Assembly (NCBI GenBank): GCA_947476185.1
Contig: CANJPX010000011.1
Location: 1-64,000, forward strand
Direction: 5' to 3'
DNA length: 64,000 nucleotides
DNA from: Bacteroidota bacterium
Lineage (GTDB): Bacteria; Bacteroidota; Bacteroidia; 2-12-FULL-35-15
The notes beneath the pieces are model-generated. The model did not search any database and was not told the DNA's origin. It worked only from the letters and a program-made list of their open reading frames with translations. How positions within the stretch are numbered: position 1 is the first letter of the stretch; every line of letters begins with the position of its first letter. This document shows positions 32,299 to 38,701 of this stretch, piece by piece. Made by a program: the position numbers and the translations under genes.

Positions 32299-33168
32299 TT
32301 AATAATACAATTCATCCGATTTTAAACGCAAGTATTTGCGCACAGCCAAGGAAGTGCTTATCCAGGAGATAATGATGCCCAACAATATTACAATTCCGAA
32401 TAGAGAAGCTAACATATTAGGATCTTGTAAGTCCGCTAATTCAGGCAATTGCTTCTGAATAAAAAATAAAAAACCGATCAACATCGCTATCGCTATACCA
32501 GCTCCGTATATGCCATGCCGTATACCTTTTAACACAAATGGCCGCCTGATGAACCCTTGCGTTGCACCAACCAATTGCATTGTTTTAATAATAAACCGTT
32601 TACTGTAAATGGTTAATCGGATGGTATTGTTTATGAGCGCCAGTGCGATAAACATCAATACACTGCTGATTATCAATACCCATAAACTGATCGTTTTTAC
32701 ATTTTCATTGATACTGTTTACCAAAGATTTCTGATAGATCACTTCCTTCACCAAATTGGTTTCCAACAACTCTTTTTCGATCCAGGCCAAACTATCCGCA
32801 TTCGCATACCCGGCCTTTAAACGCACTGTTATCGAAGCCGACAATGGATTAAATCCAAGAAAATCAATGAAATCTTCTCCGATATCTTTCTGTAATTTTT
32901 TTGCTGCTTCATCCTTTGAGATCGATTGCGTAGACTTCACATAATCGGATGCATCCAATGTTTTTATCAGATGCTGAACATCCACTTCCTTCGCATTATC
33001 ATTGATAACCACCTGAATACCGATACTCTCTTTAAAATTATCAGACAGTTTGCGTGTGTTCAATATGATGATGCCTAAAAAACCCAGCATGAACAATACC
33101 AATGAAAGACTTACAATTGTAGTGATCGATGACCCTGCTAACCTTCGTTTTGAATATTTATCCGACAC
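32299..33168 (-). CDS. ftsX: Cell-division ABC transporter permease FtsX
   Basis: About 289 residues from a GTG start at 33168, which gives the usual N-terminus MSDKYSKRRLAGSS; the frame runs open to 33285 but that stretch looks non-coding. Four transmembrane helices surround a large periplasmic domain. The cytoplasmic coupling region NTIRLTIYSKRFIIKTMQLVGAT is well conserved. FtsX works with the ATPase FtsE to activate peptidoglycan hydrolases; ftsE is not in the window. It is divergent from leuS. Confidence 0.92.
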   Translation of the reverse strand: MSDKYSKRRLAGSSITTIVSLSLVLFMLGFLGIIILNTRKLSDNFKESIGIQVVINDNAKEVDVQHLIKTLDASDYVKSTQSISKDEAAKKLQKDIGEDFIDFLGFNPLSASITVRLKAGYANADSLAWIEKELLETNLVKEVIYQKSLVNSINENVKTISLWVLIISSVLMFIALALINNTIRLTIYSKRFIIKTMQLVGATQGFIRRPFVLKGIRHGIYGAGIAIAMLIGFLFFIQKQLPELADLQDPNMLASLFGIVILLGIIISWISTSLAVRKYLRLKSDELYY

Positions 33169-33291
33169 AATATTATTTTTCGTTTGTGTAAAAATATAGC
33201 TTTTATACCTTTTGCTCTTGCTTAAATAAAATTGAAATAAACAATTCAACGTTAATAACCTGATACAATTCAAAAATTCCCTCACATTTTG

Positions 33292-33299
33292 TATATTCG
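33292..33299 (+). promoter_or_regulatory. Candidate -7 element for leuS
   Basis: TATATTCG, one base off TAnnTTTG, lies 32 bp before the leuS ATG in the divergent ftsX/leuS region. Confidence 0.4.
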
Positions 33300-33331
33300 C
33301 AACCTTATAATTTCAGCAGAATAACAAATAA

Positions 33332-36300
33332 ATGGAATACAATTTCAGAGAAGTAGAAAAGCGGTGGCAGGCCTTTTGGGCGGAAAATAAAACGTTTCGT
33401 GCTGAAGACAGATCGTCCAAACCAAAATATTATGTATTGGACATGTTTCCTTATCCAAGCGGTGCGGGATTGCATGTAGGTCACCCATTAGGATATATCG
33501 CTTCCGATATTTTTGCACGTTACAAACGTCTGAAAGGATATAATGTATTGCATCCGATGGGTTACGACTCCTTTGGACTTCCTGCAGAGCAATATGCAAT
33601 TCAAACAGGACAACATCCCGAAATAACTACTAAAACAAATATTGCACGTTACCGCGAGCAATTGGATAAGATCGGATTTTCATTTGACTGGGACAGGGAA
33701 GTGCGCACTTCAAATCCCGATTATTACAAATGGACACAGTGGATCTTTATTCAACTTTTTAATTCATGGTATAATCCCGAAACGGATAAAGCAGAAAATA
33801 TTTCTACGTTAATAGAAAAATTACGGAGCAATACCCTCTCCTTTGGAGAGGGCCGCGGTGAGACATTCTCCTCTCTTTCCGAAAAGGAACAATCTGATCT
33901 ATTGTTAGAACACCGGCTTGCATATCTAAGCGATACAATGGTGAACTGGTGTCCGCAATTGGGTACTGTACTCGCTAATGAGGAAGTGAAAGATGGTGTT
34001 TCTGAACGTGGCGGTTATCCCGTTGAACGGAAGTTGATGAAACAATGGAGCATGCGTATCACCGCTTATGCGGATAGATTATTGAAAGGTCTGGATGGCA
34101 TCGACTGGACAGAATCTATCAAGGAAGCACAACGAAATTGGATAGGAAAAAGTGAAGGAACAAGTTTAAAATTCAGCCTCGCCCCTAATCCCTCTCCAAA
34201 GGAGAGGGGAAGCGAACCCGGTTATCATACTGCTAATAAAAAAATATGGGAAATATTAAAAGAGCATTCCAGAGAAAATAGAAAAAATCAAACTGAATCA
34301 GAACAAATACTTTGGGAAAAGGTTCGTGATAGCAGACTAGGTTTTAAAATAAGGAGACAACATGCAATTGATAATTTTATTGCAGATTTTGCTTGTCTTG
34401 AAAAAAAATTAATTATCGAAGTCGATGGTAAGATACATGATTCTCAGCAAGAATATGACGAAGGAAGAACATATCGTTTAGAAGAAATAGGATATAATGT
34501 TATTCGTTTTTCAAATGATTCTGTGAAAAATAAAATTGATTGGGTGTGCAGCGAAATTGTTAAGGCGTTGCAATCACCCCTCTCCTTTGGAGAGGGGCAA
34601 GGGGGTGAGGCTTTTATTGAAGTATTTACCACAAGACCCGACACGATCTTCGGAGTTTCTTTTGTTACGCTTGCTCCGGAGCATGAATTAGTTTCACAAC
34701 TTACCACACCTCAACAAAAAAAAACAGTTGATGAATATATCCTGTTTGCAAAAAATCGCAGTGAACGCGAACGAATGGCGGATGTAAAAAAGATATCCGG
34801 AGTTTTTACCGGAGCCTATGTTCTTCATCCCTTCACCGGAAAACAAATTCCGATCTGGATCGGTGATTATGTGTTGGCCGGTTACGGAACAGGCGCTGTA
34901 ATGGCGGTTCCCGGACACGACTCGCGCGACTATGCCTTTGCAAAACATTTTGAAATTGATATTATTCAAGTTGTTCTCCCCCCTTCTCCTTTGGAGAAGG
35001 GGCCGGGGGATGAGGCCTACGATGCAAAGGAAGGCAAATTAATAAATTCCGATTTCTTAAATGGATTGGAAGTGAAAGCAGCTGTTAAAAAAGCAATTGC
35101 TGTTATTGAAGAAAAATCTTTAGGAAAAGGCAAAACGAATTTCCGTTTGCGCGATGCTGTTTTTGGCCGTCAACGTTATTGGGGTGAACCAATTCCTGTA
35201 TATTATGAAAATGGTATTCCGAAAGTTTTAGATGAAAATGAATTGCCATTAGTACTTCCTGAAGTAGATAAATATTTACCAACCGAAAGCGGTGAACCAC
35301 CATTGGCACGTGCTACAAATTGGAAGTACAGGCCAAAATCCTCCTTCGAAGGGGGCAAGGGGGATGATGCCTATGCATACGAACATTCTACAATGCCCGG
35401 ATGGGCAGGCTCATCCTGGTATTTTTTACGATACATGGATGCACACAACCGGAAAGAATTTGTGAGCAAAGAAGCCGTTGATTATTGGCAAAATGTTGAC
35501 CTATACATTGGTGGTGCAGAACATGCAACAGGACATTTATTATACGTTCGTTTCTGGACAAAATTTTTAAATGATCTTGGATTAATTCCTTTTTCAGAAC
35601 CCGCTAAGAAGTTGATCAATCAAGGGATGATACAGGGGGTGAGTAGTTTTGTATACAGAATAGAAAATTCAAATAAATTTGTTTCAATTGGCTTAAAAAA
35701 AGATTTTGAAACTACAGCACTTCACGTTGACGTAAATATTGTAAACAACAATACATTAGATATAGACGCTTTCAAAAACTGGAGAGAAGAATATAAGGAT
35801 GCAGAATTTATTTTGGAAGATGGGAAATACATCTGCGGAAGTGAAGTAGAAAAAATGTCCAAATCGAAATGGAATGTTGTGAGTCCGGATCTGATGGTTG
35901 AACAATACGGCGCAGACTGTTTGCGCTTATATGAAATGTTCCTCGGTCCGCTTGAACTTTCCAAACCATGGAATACAAACGGAATTTCAGGTGTTTCAAA
36001 TTTCATCCGTAAACTTTGGAGGTTGTATCAAAAGGACGAGACATTTTCTGTTTCCAACGAAGCTGCAACAAAACCGGAACTAAAAGCATTACACAAAACC
36101 ATCAAAAAGATCATTCATGATATTGAAAATTTCTCTTTCAATACTTCTGTGAGTAGCTTTATGATCTGTGTAAACGAATTAACAGATCTGAAATGCAATA
36201 AACGTGAAATTTTAGAACCGCTAGCCATCATCATTGCTCCGTATGCACCTCATCTTGCAGAAGAACTCTGGAAAAACTTGGGTCATGCAGAAACGATCAC

Positions 36301-36532
36301 CTACGCTGCTTTCCCTGAATGTATCGAATCGTACCTCGTTGAAAGCACTTTCAGTTATCCCGTTTCCTTTAACGGGAAAACGCGCTTTTTTCAGGAATAC
36401 GACCTTTCATTGAACAAAGAACAAATAGAAAAAGAAGTATTGACCCTTGAACAAACTCAGAAATACCTAGATGGAAAAGCACCTAAAAAGGTCATCGTGG
36501 TTCACAATAAGATCATAAATATTGTCGTTTAA
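33332..36532 (+). CDS. leuS: Leucyl-tRNA synthetase with in-frame palindromes and a DUF559 nuclease insertion
   Basis: 1066 residues, well above the 920-950 usual in Bacteroidota. Class I synthetase that charges tRNA-Leu. All key motifs are present: HVGH in [21 protein letters not shown] before the CP1 editing domain, the editing motifs FTTRPDT and [17 protein letters not shown] and [10 protein letters not shown]. Five GC-rich repeats are translated in frame at about residues 168-178, 282-294, 416-427, 549-562 and 670-680. Residues about 303-414 form a DUF559/Vsr-like nuclease domain. All insertions fall in variable surface loops, so the enzyme may still be active. A frameshift or assembly artefact is unlikely because the frame is intact throughout. 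Confidence 0.95.
33834..33863 (+). repeat. Palindromic repeat A inside leuS (CTCTCC-TTT-GGAGAG class)
   Basis: CCCTCTCC (33834-33841), TTT, GGAGAGGG (33845-33852), then a GC-rich tail CCGCGGTGAGA. It is read in the leuS frame as [11 protein letters not shown], in the variable stretch before the [15 protein letters not shown] motif. Confidence 0.88.
34177..34210 (-). repeat. Palindromic repeat B inside leuS, inverted, left boundary of nuclease insert
   Basis: Tail CCTCGCCCCTAAT followed by CCCTCTCC-AAA-GGAGAGGG (34190-34208). The orientation is opposite to repeats A and C. The leuS frame reads it as [12 protein letters not shown]. It forms the left end of the DUF559 insertion. Confidence 0.88.
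34577..34610 (+). repeat. Palindromic repeat C inside leuS, right boundary of nuclease insert
   Basis: CCCCTCTCC (34577-34585), TTT, GGAGAGGGG (34589-34597), then CAAGGGGGTGAGG. It is the same class as A and the inverted partner of B. Read as [13 protein letters not shown], it ends directly before the [11 protein letters not shown] editing motif. Confidence 0.9.
34980..35015 (+). repeat. Palindromic repeat D inside leuS (CTTCTCC-TTT-GGAGAAG class)
   Basis: CCCCTTCTCC (34980-34989), TTT, GGAGAAGGGG (34993-35002), then CCGGGGGATGAGG. Perfect 10-bp stem. Read as [13 protein letters not shown] in the late part of the CP1 domain, before the [14 protein letters not shown] motif. Confidence 0.9.
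35340..35368 (+). repeat. Palindromic repeat E inside leuS (CTTCGAAG class)
   Basis: CCTCCTTCGAAGGGGG (35340-35355, one G-T wobble) followed by CAAGGGGGATGATG. It belongs to the same class as the intergenic copy at 11861-11890. The leuS frame reads [11 protein letters not shown], just before the [13 protein letters not shown] motif. Confidence 0.85.
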
Positions 36533-36553
36533 AGATAAACGCGGTAAATAATT

Positions 36554-36584
36554 GAAAAAGGAGCGTTTTTAATGCTCCTTTTTC
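36554..36584 (+). terminator. Rho-independent terminator after leuS
   Basis: GAAAAAGGAGC and GCTCCTTTTTC pair over 11 bp with a 9-nt loop, 21 bp after the leuS stop. Confidence 0.9.
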
Positions 36585-36672
36585 CGTTTCTAACCTTTTG
36601 ATACCCTATTTCGTAAAAAAACCAGGATTTGGCATAAGGTTTGGATTAGTCTATTCAACTAAACTCAATACA

Positions 36673-37497
36673 ATGAAAAAGTTTGTTTTAATAGGAACAG
36701 TAACAATGATTGCAGGTATTGCCTGTTTATCATTTCAGAAAGAAAAAGAATTGCCTCAGGTAAACATTGAAGGTCCTGTAAAAGAACTTCCAATAGTAAA
36801 TAATGAAGCATTCAAACGTGGTGAATTATTAACCTTCCGTATGCACTACGGGATCATTGAGGCTGGTATTGCAACGCTCGGAATTACAGAAGAGGCAAGA
36901 GAAATTGCCGGAAGAAAAACATATCACGTAGTTGGATTAGGTGAATCAAGAGGTGCTTTCGACTTTTTTTATAAAGTACGTGACCGATACGAAACATTCA
37001 TTGATGAAAAATCGATTGTGCCTTGGGTTTTCTTGCGTCACGTGAATGAAGGCGGTTATACCATCAATCAAAGTTATGTGTTCAACCGTTATAGCGAAAA
37101 TGTAAATGTCGGGAATGGTGAAACATTCAAAGTTGAACCGAACATGCAAGATATGTTATCAGCTTTTTATGCAGCCCGCAATTTAGATCTGGGGGGTGCA
37201 AAACCAGGCGAAACATATGCTATCAATTGTTTTATGGATAAAGAAGTTTGGCCCTTAAAAGTAAAATTCATCGGCCGTGAAACAATTACTACCGATCTTG
37301 GAACATTCAAATGCCTGAAATACAGACCTATTGTTCAACAAGGTCGTGTTTTTAAACATGAAGAAGATGTGAATATCTGGATTACAGACGATAAAAATCA
37401 CATTCCTGTTTTAGGTCAAGCCGATGTTTTAGTAGGTTCTATCAAAGCAGAACTAAAATCCTATAAAGGTTTAGCAAACCCTGTTTCAAAAATTTAA
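36673..37497 (+). CDS. DUF3108-domain protein
   Basis: 274 residues from the ATG at 36673; the frame is open to a TTG at 36598, but the extra 25 codons cover the leuS downstream region. The N-terminus MKKFVLIGTVTMIAGIACLSFQ is a signal peptide or anchor. The core has the DUF3108 pattern GELLTFRMHYGIIEAGIATLGI, YHVVGLGESRGAFDFFYKVRD and the ITDDKNHIPVLGQADVLVGSI end. Predicted periplasmic beta-rich protein of unknown function, widely present in Bacteroidota. Confidence 0.88.
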   Translation: MKKFVLIGTVTMIAGIACLSFQKEKELPQVNIEGPVKELPIVNNEAFKRGELLTFRMHYGIIEAGIATLGITEEAREIAGRKTYHVVGLGESRGAFDFFYKVRDRYETFIDEKSIVPWVFLRHVNEGGYTINQSYVFNRYSENVNVGNGETFKVEPNMQDMLSAFYAARNLDLGGAKPGETYAINCFMDKEVWPLKVKFIGRETITTDLGTFKCLKYRPIVQQGRVFKHEEDVNIWITDDKNHIPVLGQADVLVGSIKAELKSYKGLANPVSKI

Positions 37498-37518
37498 TTA
37501 AGCAATATCCCCATATGC

Positions 37519-37557
37519 AAAAATGCCTCCCTCTGTTAATCTGAAGGAGGCATTTTT
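37519..37557 (+). terminator. Rho-independent terminator after the DUF3108 gene
   Basis: AAAAATGCCTCC (37519-37530) pairs with GGAGGCATTTTT (37546-37557), giving a 12-bp stem ending in a T run. Confidence 0.92.
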
Positions 37558-37681
37558 ATTTACAGCCCCAAAATTTGCATCATCGCGATGGAGCTGCCAT
37601 TATTAAAAAGCTCTTCCTGAAAAACATTTTTTATTATTTCTACCTTTTAACTATCTTGCAATCGATTAAAAAAAAATTACA

Positions 37682-38650
37682 ATGAAATTAAAACCGGAAA
37701 TAGTTGACCGCATAAAATTATTGGATGAGAAATTTCAAACAATGGGACAAGATCTTGCATCTTATCTAGATGGATTGTTATACGCTGATTACCTGACTTA
37801 TTGGGATTACATTCACCTCGACACATTATTAAGTCTGCAGAGTCCGAAAACAAAAATACCGGATGAAGAGATCTTTATCATGTACCACCAAATTACAGAG
37901 TTGTATTTTAAACTTTGTTTACACGAATACAATCAGCTTGCGGAAAAAAAAGATATTGATGTTAAATTTTTAACCGACCGCATCAATCGTATCAATCGCT
38001 ATTTCGAAGGATTAATTTCTTCTTTTGATATCATGGTGGATGGAATGGATCCAAAACAATTCCTGAAATTCAGAATGAGCTTATTACCCGCAAGTGGCTT
38101 CCAATCCGGACAATACAGAATGATTGAAATATGTTCTACCACTTTCAAAAATTTGGTTGCGAAGGATATCCGCGATACTTTTAATGATGATCTGAATGAT
38201 GAACAGATCGCGAAAATGTATGAACATATTTACTGGAAGGCTGGAGCAACGGAGCTTGCAACAGGTAAAAAAACATTGACACTTATTCAATTCGAAGAAA
38301 AATATCAAAAAATATTTATTGAACTGGCACAAAGATTCAAGCACACCAATTTGTTAGCACTCTACAAATCAATGTCGGAAGAGGATCAGAAAAATGAAAA
38401 CCTGGTGATGGCACTCCGTCAAATGGATGTGAATGTAAATATCAACTGGCCTTTGTCGCATTACAAATCTGCTGTTCGTTATCTTCAAAAAGACCCGGAA
38501 GATATCGCTGCAACAGGTGGAACAAACTGGCAAAAATATCTGCCTCCGCGTTTCCAAAAACGTATTTTTTATCCTGAATTATGGAATGATATCGAAGTGG
38601 ATGAATGGGGTAAAACCTGGGTAAAATCTGTAGCCTTCGGAATAAAATAA
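37682..38650 (+). CDS. kynA: Tryptophan 2,3-dioxygenase family protein
   Basis: 322 residues, all helical. TDO opens the indole ring of tryptophan to N-formylkynurenine with haem. Landmarks are YADYLTYWDYIHLDTLLSLQ, the MYHQITELYFKLCLHE substrate-side helix, LPASGFQSGQYRMIE and ATGGTNWQKYLPP. The catalytic His of the TELYFK region is retained as H in YHQITEL. No kynureninase or formamidase lies nearby, so the extent of the pathway is unknown. It converges on the DAHP synthase gene. Confidence 0.92.
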   Translation: MKLKPEIVDRIKLLDEKFQTMGQDLASYLDGLLYADYLTYWDYIHLDTLLSLQSPKTKIPDEEIFIMYHQITELYFKLCLHEYNQLAEKKDIDVKFLTDRINRINRYFEGLISSFDIMVDGMDPKQFLKFRMSLLPASGFQSGQYRMIEICSTTFKNLVAKDIRDTFNDDLNDEQIAKMYEHIYWKAGATELATGKKTLTLIQFEEKYQKIFIELAQRFKHTNLLALYKSMSEEDQKNENLVMALRQMDVNVNINWPLSHYKSAVRYLQKDPEDIAATGGTNWQKYLPPRFQKRIFYPELWNDIEVDEWGKTWVKSVAFGIK

Positions 38651-38701
38651 ATTTACCCCTGCTTAAAGTCCTTCTCCCTCAGAGAGCGACTTAGGCTGAG
38701 G
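38649..38701 (-). repeat. Palindromic-like repeat forming the 3' end of the DAHP synthase gene
   Basis: On the minus strand, CCTCAGCC is followed by AAGTC-G-CTCTC-TGA-GGGAG-AAG-GACTT, a hairpin of the same style as the leuS repeats, and then a short GC-rich tail. It encodes the final residues PKSLSEGEGL and the stop codon. Confidence 0.6.

What the first reader, a model, noticed from the sequence alone, without database searches (positions are those of the whole stretch)
34177..34610. A DUF559 nuclease domain flanked by inverted palindromes is inserted in frame in leucyl-tRNA synthetase
Seen directly: a 434-bp block inside leuS has related 34-35 bp inverted repeats at its ends and encodes a Vsr/PD-(D/E)XK-like domain with the expected D352, E363/D365 and H369. 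The leuS frame runs through it without a stop. It lies between WIGKSEG and the FTTRPDT editing motif, at the CP1 junction. DUF559 is a known nuclease-clan family. Inference: this is a composite mobile unit in which two copies of a short palindrome mobilised a nuclease gene, or a nuclease drives spread of the palindromes, much as a homing endonuclease does but without splicing.
Basis: partly seen in the sequence, partly recalled or inferred. Interest (0 to 1): 0.92.

Follow-up and report, generated by a model that had tools for sequence, protein, structure and literature searches.

The report
In-frame mobile nuclease inside essential genes
A small nuclease gene bounded by DNA palindromes sits in frame inside the essential leucyl-tRNA synthetase gene of a Bacteroidia bacterium, is missing from the same gene of the closest relative found, and recurs inside unrelated genes of other Bacteroidota, so it is likely a mobile element that would spread by cutting DNA while the enzyme around it is predicted to keep its fold.

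Summary
leuS (33332-36532) reads without a stop through a DUF559 nuclease domain bounded by inverted palindromes. A sister genome 97% identical over leuS lacks the block: alignment breaks at 34175/34614, with 21 nt in place of 438. In the same pair, one metH site carries DUF559 inserts only 45% identical inside 97%-identical MetH protein. The same kind of unit lies in frame in acs, ileS, recJ, recG, IcmF, chorismate synthase and others, also in records not labelled as metagenome-assembled. Of 67 scored DUF559 elements, embedded or free, 58 have matched palindromic ends (random positions 1 of 268), and the ends vary with the nuclease lineage. Catalytic residues are invariant in 54 LeuS compared; dN/dS is 0.04-0.24 where measurable. 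The domain is homologous to homing endonuclease I-Bth0305I; Rfam shows no intron above threshold and Pfam no intein domain. I read it as a splicing-free, gene-embedded, homing-like element with cognate palindromes. Mobility rests on direct comparison. Cutting, target choice and copying route are inferred. Limits: a tree test does not reject one origin for the metH inserts, and leuS inserts show some vertical signal.

The parts
33332..36532 (+). leuS (leucyl-tRNA synthetase), 1066 aa, one open frame containing the insert
   Evidence: ORF; Pfam tRNA-synt_1, editing domain and Anticodon_1; model matches LeuRS structures
34176..34613 (+). the inserted block: 438 nt where sister genome G044 has 21 nt; the leuS frame runs through it
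   Evidence: BLASTN alignment breaks at 34175 and 34614
34176..34209 (-). left palindromic end: outer arm then hairpin (CCCTCTCC-AAA-GGAGAGGG at 34190-34208)
   Evidence: single-strand DNA fold -8.8 kcal/mol, z -1.82, 10 of 200 shuffles as good
34259..34573 (+). DUF559 nuclease domain (LeuS residues 310-414; D352, E363, D365, H369)
   Evidence: model pLDDT 90; 3hrl and I-Bth0305I matches
34577..34611 (+). right palindromic end: hairpin (CCCTCTCC-TTT-GGAGAGGG at 34578-34596) then outer arm
   Evidence: single-strand DNA fold -10 kcal/mol, z -2.35, 3 of 200 shuffles as good
33834..33861 (+). solo palindrome in frame in leuS, shared with sister G044
34981..35009 (+). solo palindrome in frame in leuS, absent from sister G044
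35335..35363 (+). solo palindrome variant in frame in leuS, shared with G044; the same leuS site carries a whole DUF559 unit in G038

Best explanation
The block at 34176-34613 is one copy of a palindrome-bounded DUF559 nuclease unit that lies in frame inside unrelated housekeeping genes across Bacteroidota, and it likely spreads as a splicing-free homing-like element whose nuclease would cut a target site and be copied into the break. Shown: the unit is [outer arm-hairpin]-DUF559-[hairpin-outer arm]; it reads through in frame; its active site is conserved and under purifying selection; it is absent from a near-identical sister; at one metH site the two sister genomes carry different lineages with no visible transfer of flank; and nuclease lineages tend to have their own palindrome types. 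Predicted: the palindrome-encoded peptides are flexible linkers, so host enzyme and nuclease both fold. Inferred: the nuclease, made as part of the host protein, cuts or nicks a resident palindrome or the empty host site, and repair copies the unit in; only in-frame events in tolerant loops survive; solo palindromes are targets, derivatives or remnants.
For: Empty site in a sister 97.2% identical over leuS (2682 of 2759 aligned nt), with the spacer length of most empty genomes (16 of 22, G044 included). metH G000 vs G044: flanks 97% aa, and 98% and 95% DNA in the 90 nt beside the insert; inserts 45% aa with different palindromes. acs site: 4 of 30 read are occupied, 26 have a short spacer. Matched ends: 58 of 67 scored elements vs 1 of 268 random positions; own left-right pairing beats another element's in 335 of 372 and 383 of 432 comparisons. 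Cognate association: palindrome family (a) at 6 or more copies, own ends included, in 8 of 8 genomes with that DUF559 type vs 3 of 28 without, Fisher p 5.5e-6; end similarity follows nuclease similarity, 0 of 999 permutations as high. Invariant catalytic residues and dN/dS 0.04-0.24 in the 16 of 19 domain pairs with finite dS. Homology to homing endonuclease I-Bth0305I. LeuS model: linkers 285-299 and 416-426 under pLDDT 50, DUF559 and LeuRS folds kept. Recurrence in many hosts.
Against: No cutting, transposition or homing has been observed. The AU test does not reject a single clade for the nine metH inserts (p 0.318). Over 2926 LeuS pairs insert and host identities correlate weakly but positively (rho 0.34), so part of the distribution is vertical. 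No target duplication was seen; the insert replaces host bases. In a wider set only 31 of 63 embedded units reach the inverted-repeat threshold (random 0 of 269). Mismatched ends of different elements also reach it in 77 of 300 and 48 of 300 trials, because palindrome types are shared. Some genomes have the palindromes without the matching DUF559 (G003, G042, G016, G001), and two have embedded DUF559 but none of the exact core (G049, G011). The gain in G000 leuS came at an empty site, not a solo palindrome, which fits homing into palindromes less well than allele-to-allele homing or direct insertion. Several dS values exceed 1 and are rough.
Confidence: 0.72

Rival explanations
1. Palindrome-bounded transposon: the palindromes are terminal inverted repeats, and DUF559 (or an unknown transposase acting in trans) moves the unit by cut or copy and paste into any loop; selection keeps the in-frame copies.
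For: Matched inverted ends; insertion at an empty leuS site; many host genes; inverted pairs of family (a) about 125 bp apart in G043.
Against: No target duplication seen; host bases are replaced at the insert; sites are re-used: leuS ~277, leuS ~516 and one metH site are occupied in many genomes, metH by different lineages; the closest characterised relative is a homing endonuclease.
Confidence: 0.25
2. Old domain insertion inherited with the host genes and often lost; present patchiness is loss.
For: leuS-site inserts of the genus form one supported group together with G029; insert and host identities correlate, rho 0.34; AU test does not reject one metH clade; in-frame decay exists (G008 metH).
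Against: G000 and G044 differ at 97% identity, and G044 keeps the common empty length and sequence type, not a scar; their metH inserts are 45% identical between 97%-identical flanks; the same domain sits in many unrelated genes.
Confidence: 0.06
3. The domain is useful to the host, for example adding a nucleic-acid or defence function to the enzyme.
For: dN/dS well below 1 and invariant active site; the free-standing relative L012 has weak matches to a restriction enzyme model (7.7e-7) and to DpdF (2.1e-6).
Against: The hosts share no function; most orthologues read lack it; G022 metH has lost the histidine and its palindromes, and G008 metH has lost most of the domain, both in frame.
Confidence: 0.05
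4. Assembly chimera or mis-binning.
For: The window comes from a draft genome in 220 contigs; reads were not available.
Against: Same architecture at the same leuS site in independent genomes and in leuS of Flavobacterium rivuli DSM 21788 and Daejeonella sp. H1SJ63, whose records are not labelled as metagenome-assembled; conserved reading frame.
Confidence: 0.01
5. The insert is removed from RNA or protein, or skipped by ribosomes.
For: Hairpins at both ends.
Against: No Rfam family above its gathering score in 33000-36700 (one sub-threshold match); Pfam reports no intein domain; all five palindromes in this leuS keep the frame and the domain is under purifying selection as protein, which excision or skipping would not require.
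Confidence: 0.04

Closest known systems
EDxHD (Vsr-like) homing endonucleases, type I-Bth0305I
   Same: Homologous catalytic domain: Foldseek E 7.7e-5, profile E 2.8e-6; occupied and empty alleles at one site
   Different: Known ones in the passages I read sit in self-splicing introns or inteins or are free-standing (PMC3943268, passages); this one is read as part of the host protein and has matched palindromic ends
REPtrons: RAYT transposase with REP palindromes
   Same: Gene flanked by palindromes, solo copies elsewhere in the genome (PMC3733652, passages); here palindrome types also follow the nuclease lineage
   Different: DUF559 nuclease instead of an HUH tyrosine transposase; no GTAG or CGTC tag at the window's two ends; embedded in frame in host genes
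Rickettsia palindromic elements (recalled; listings only)
   Same: Palindromes inserted in frame in protein genes, like the solo palindromes here
   Different: As I recall, no nuclease gene is known for them; here a nuclease-bearing version exists
NGO0050 endonuclease-like protein, PDB 3hrl
   Same: DUF559-type protein, profile E 3.2e-33, 104-residue chain
   Different: Deposited as a short stand-alone chain; role not stated in the entry title

Membership tests
DUF559 (PF04480) | Pfam score over the curated cut-off | tested here: met
   114.1 bits against 20.6
EDxHD homing endonuclease | homologous nuclease domain with conserved acidic and His residues | tested here: met
   that these residues are the family's E-D-H motif is recalled
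EDxHD homing endonuclease | occupied and empty alleles at one site | tested here: met
   leuS G000 vs G044; acs 4 of 30 occupied
EDxHD homing endonuclease | cuts the empty allele and is copied into it | not testable with these tools
   needs enzyme and homing assays
EDxHD homing endonuclease | carried by a self-splicing intron or intein (common, not obligatory) | tested here: not met
   open frame, no Rfam family over its gathering score, no intein domain in Pfam
REPtron (RAYT/REP) | palindromes flank the gene | tested here: met
REPtron (RAYT/REP) | HUH tyrosine transposase | tested here: not met
   DUF559 nuclease by Pfam and fold
REPtron (RAYT/REP) | GTAG or CGTC tag on the palindrome | tested here: not met
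   read from the window's ends at 34176-34209 and 34577-34611; not checked for every element
Inverted-repeat transposon or MITE | terminal inverted repeats | tested here: met
Inverted-repeat transposon or MITE | target-site duplication | tested here: not met
   438 nt replace 21 nt in the sister, no flanking duplication seen; one junction pair only
Rickettsia palindromic elements | palindrome inserted in frame in protein genes | tested here: met
   five in leuS; 9 of 25 in G007 lie in frames of 200 aa or more
Rickettsia palindromic elements | sequence relationship to the Rickettsia families | not tested
   no comparison made

The most novel reading that the evidence does not exclude
A class of mobile elements that lives as an extra translated domain inside essential proteins: no intron, no intein, apparently no start codon of its own, tolerated because its palindromic ends encode flexible linkers, and driven by a DUF559 nuclease that homes into palindromes or host sites. 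The solo palindromes scattered through Bacteroidota genomes would be its targets and debris, making DUF559 to these palindromes what RAYT is to REPs. Most embedded copies form a lineage apart from the free-standing ones, as if specialised for life inside genes.
Probability: 0.6. Interest if true: 0.95.

Novelty: categorically new. Interest (0 to 1): 0.9.

Why it matters
[quoted passage not shown] Here a relative appears to persist in conserved genes by being translated as a tolerated domain. If true, it suggests a driver for palindromes that spread through Bacteroidota genomes, a source of new protein domains, and a natural catalogue of insertion-tolerant loops in leuS, metH, acs, recG and others. 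It also makes an open question testable: which enzyme moves short intragenic palindromes.

Tried and rejected
Tried: assembly chimera (judged unlikely: independent genomes; no reads to map); intron or intein (nothing found); phage carriage (19 distant matches in viral contigs, best near-full-length 40% identity); plasmid carriage (38 records, all under 60% identity; in the 12 listed the annotation is a stand-alone endonuclease, none, or missing, and frames were not checked); defence-system role (insert: one weak match, to a model named homing endonuclease; free-standing L012: restriction enzyme model 7.7e-7 and DpdF 2.1e-6, not followed further); separate origin of the two metH groups from the tree alone (AU p 0.318, not rejected). 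Two second DUF559 hits in LeuS (P0014, P0057) are short with very long branches and I do not count them as firm. The Rfam PYLIS_3 match (23.4 bits against a gathering score of 38) is taken as chance. The match of the L060 frame to the BadF family is below that family's cut-off.

Full report
OBSERVATION. leuS (33332-36532) is a single open frame of 1066 codons. Pfam places DUF559 at residues 310-414 (E 3.7e-33, 114.1 bits, cut-off 20.6) between the catalytic part and the editing domain. The ends are inverted palindromes, 34182-34209 against 34577-34604 (89% complementary), and three further related palindromes lie in the same gene (33834, 34982, 35335). A scan of the 64-kb window with up to five mismatches found the core at two mismatches or fewer only inside leuS, plus one five-mismatch match at 38670. 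In the whole draft genome the core with any three-base loop occurs at four places: three in leuS and one at C9:3746, which lies in the metH frame carrying a second in-frame DUF559.

EMPTY SITE. The closest genome found, G044, aligns to the window at 98.4% over 33099-34175 and 95.6% over 34614-38030, and the alignment breaks exactly at the block; G044 has 21 nt there. Over leuS the identity is 2682 of 2759 aligned nt. At this site 33 of the 36 genomes of the genus were read: 5 carry the full unit (G000, G004, G013, G019, G021), 4 a solo palindrome of this family (G002, G010, G050, and a degraded one in G022), 2 another or partial palindrome (G015, G016), 22 no recognisable one. Of these 22, 16 including G044 have the same short spacer length; the others are somewhat longer. 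G001, G018 and G042 were not read. The solo palindrome at 34981 is also absent from G044, whereas those at 33834 and 35335 are shared. In both differences bases are replaced rather than simply added, and I saw no target duplication.

OTHER HOST GENES. The insert finds in-frame relatives inside other long frames. In 9 frames sent, Pfam shows methionine synthase, acetyl-CoA synthetase, RecJ, an IleS-type synthetase, an aldehyde dehydrogenase-MaoC fusion, a SpoIIE-type regulator, HsdR and a CoA-transferase around DUF559, and a BadF-type match below cut-off. In 10 more: three leuS, two RecG, an Lhr-type helicase, RecQ (DUF559 N-terminal), an IcmF-type mutase, chorismate synthase and a glutamine amidotransferase (DUF559 C-terminal). 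Records not labelled as metagenome-assembled include Flavobacterium rivuli DSM 21788 and Daejeonella sp. H1SJ63 (leuS), Flavobacterium difficile KDG-16 and Tenacibaculum gallaicum DSM 18841 (recG), and Mucilaginibacter sp. OK268 (Lhr-type). A search with the insert among proteins of 0.55-1.75 times the length of LeuS returned 238 proteins at E <= 1e-3 of 351 candidates; 120 were listed. By their Pfam lists 101 of the 120 are LeuS (the window's own included), 16 MetH, 2 IcmF (inserted at two different positions) and 1 IleS-type. Ten of the 120 have two DUF559 hits, eight of them clear doubles in LeuS at about residues 277 and 516 of the empty reference.

SITE HISTORY. metH: of 31 genes read (36 genomes searched), 9 have the unit at one site, 1 (G008) an in-frame internal deletion of it, 4 a solo palindrome (G004, G012, G046, G050), 17 short spacers; G046 has a unit at another metH position. 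acs: 30 read, 4 occupied, 26 with a short spacer. metH of G000 and G044: the flanking 636 aa are 97% identical and the DNA 98% and 95% in the 90 nt on either side, yet the inserts are 45% identical and bear different palindromes; G000's resembles G045, G043 and G049 (76-82%), G044's resembles G015, G018 and G005 (70-80%). So one was exchanged or gained without visible flank transfer. Trees: a quick tree of 146 inserts needs 24 changes of host or site label where 11 is the minimum. A careful tree of 85 rows puts 44 embedded inserts, excluding the badF and hsdR ones, on one side of a branch (97/92). Against me: the AU test does not reject one metH clade (p 0.318), and across 2926 LeuS pairs insert and host identity correlate at rho 0.34, with 34 pairs in which the host is more alike by over 25 points and 4 in which the insert is more alike by over 10. 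Some inheritance is vertical.

ENDS. For 67 of 70 DUF559 domains (genus and some relatives) with enough flank, the best inverted pair in 160 nt either side reached the threshold in 27 of 31 embedded and 31 of 36 free ones, against 0 of 143 and 1 of 125 random positions. Ends of different elements paired at the threshold in 77 of 300 and 48 of 300 trials, since types are shared; an element's own ends matched better than another's in 335 of 372 and 383 of 432 comparisons. 'Embedded' here means a frame of 300 aa or more, so an out-of-frame insertion would be counted as free. In the 80-locus set it was 31 of 63 embedded and 9 of 17 free, random 0 of 269. Embedded units mostly have the extra arm outside the hairpin (20 out, 1 in, 3 both, 9 unclassed); free ones more often inside or both (2 out, 9 in, 12 both, 14 unclassed). 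In the alignment rows shown, embedded domains begin in a linker and several free ones near their own Met; the window's insert holds no Met, though GTG or TTG starts were not excluded.

COGNATE PALINDROMES. Family (a), the ends of the free DUF559 at G000:C12: 6-103 copies (own ends included) in the 8 genomes with that DUF559 type (counting a stop-interrupted copy in G048 and a broken one in G009), against 3 of 28 others with 6 or more; Fisher p 5.5e-6; the backwards control pattern gave 0. Family (b): 3-5 copies in the three genomes whose DUF559 has both such ends (G003, G010, G048; two copies are its own ends), one beside the DUF559 of G015, and one each in G001 and G016. The leuS-type core: 0-55 copies per genome, control 0, more in genomes with embedded DUF559 (Mann-Whitney p 0.0067), with exceptions both ways. 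Five of the 36 genomes have no DUF559; of these G001 still has 6 core copies and G042 11 of family (a). Over 59 elements and 1656 pairs, leaving out elements with weak ends and pairs at one host site, end similarity follows nuclease similarity (rho 0.32, 0 of 999 permutations as high). In G007, 9 of 25 core palindromes lie in frames of 200 aa or more.

PROTEIN. D352, E363, D365 and H369 are invariant in 54 LeuS that I chose from those listed with the insert at this site; in 54 of the 70 embedded and free domains D, E and D are invariant and H is kept in at least 90%. dN/dS is 0.04-0.24 for 16 of 19 domain pairs; in the other three dS was saturated, and several finite dS exceed 1. The domain model (pLDDT 90) matches 3hrl (E 3.3e-7) and the homing endonuclease I-Bth0305I (E 7.7e-5), as does the sequence profile (3.2e-33 and 2.8e-6). 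The full LeuS model (pLDDT 81.5) keeps the LeuRS fold (TM 0.81 to 2bte by target length). Its stretches under pLDDT 50 are 285-299 and 416-426, which lie at the palindrome-encoded linkers around a folded DUF559, 171-176 and 673-676 at two solo palindromes, and 43-49. G022 metH has lost the histidine and its palindromes, which looks like decay in frame rather than domestication.

MECHANISM (inferred). A nuclease related to a homing endonuclease, made as part of LeuS, cuts an empty allele or a resident palindrome; repair copies the unit; copies that keep frame in a tolerant loop survive. The leuS gain in G000 fits allele-to-allele homing, or direct insertion, at an empty site; its nearest listed relative is another leuS insert (P0002, insert 86%, host 81%). 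The shared ends offer homology for jumps to new genes that carry solo palindromes: leuS ~516 has a solo palindrome in G000, G010 and G016 but a full unit in G038. Loss leaves remnants or solos.

PRIOR ART. Searches for DUF559 with palindromes, transposition, endonuclease or tRNA synthetase, for in-frame palindromes in Bacteroidetes, for Rickettsia elements and for Vsr-type homing endonucleases listed no paper that, by title and abstract start, describes this; the library holds open-licence papers only, so subscription papers are not excluded. Read in passages: PMC3733652 and PMC3943268; all others as listings. Rickettsia palindromic elements are otherwise recalled.

Noticed in passing
G000:C9:5088-5399 (locus L010): A second in-frame DUF559 in metH of the same genome, of another lineage and with different palindromes
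   Followed up: yes
L012 and L011 (G000:C12, G000:C13): Free-standing DUF559 genes flanked by their own palindromes, arms pointing inward
   Followed up: partly
L360 and L361 (G043): Many family (a) palindromes in G043 come as inverted pairs about 125 bp apart; the AT-rich DNA between them differs in the two pairs read
   Followed up: partly
L071 (G016 leuS): At the same leuS site a different palindrome (starting GTCATCCTGAGC) has inserted in frame, and family (b) occupies another leuS site at G016:C76:31439
   Followed up: no
L146 (G049:C11): A DUF559 frame runs on into a tandem array of palindrome-encoded peptides, about seven copies
   Followed up: no
L339 (G007:C19): A solo palindrome sits in frame just before an ATTRPE motif, which by eye looks like valyl-tRNA synthetase, a position like the leuS site
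   Followed up: no
L273, L308, L323, L328, L329: DUF559 relatives in records labelled Aminicenantes, Nomurabacteria, Anaerolineales, Chloroflexi and Rhizonema: wider spread or mis-binning
   Followed up: no
window 34418-34514: Sub-threshold Rfam match to PYLIS_3 (23.4 bits, gathering score 38), taken as chance
   Followed up: no
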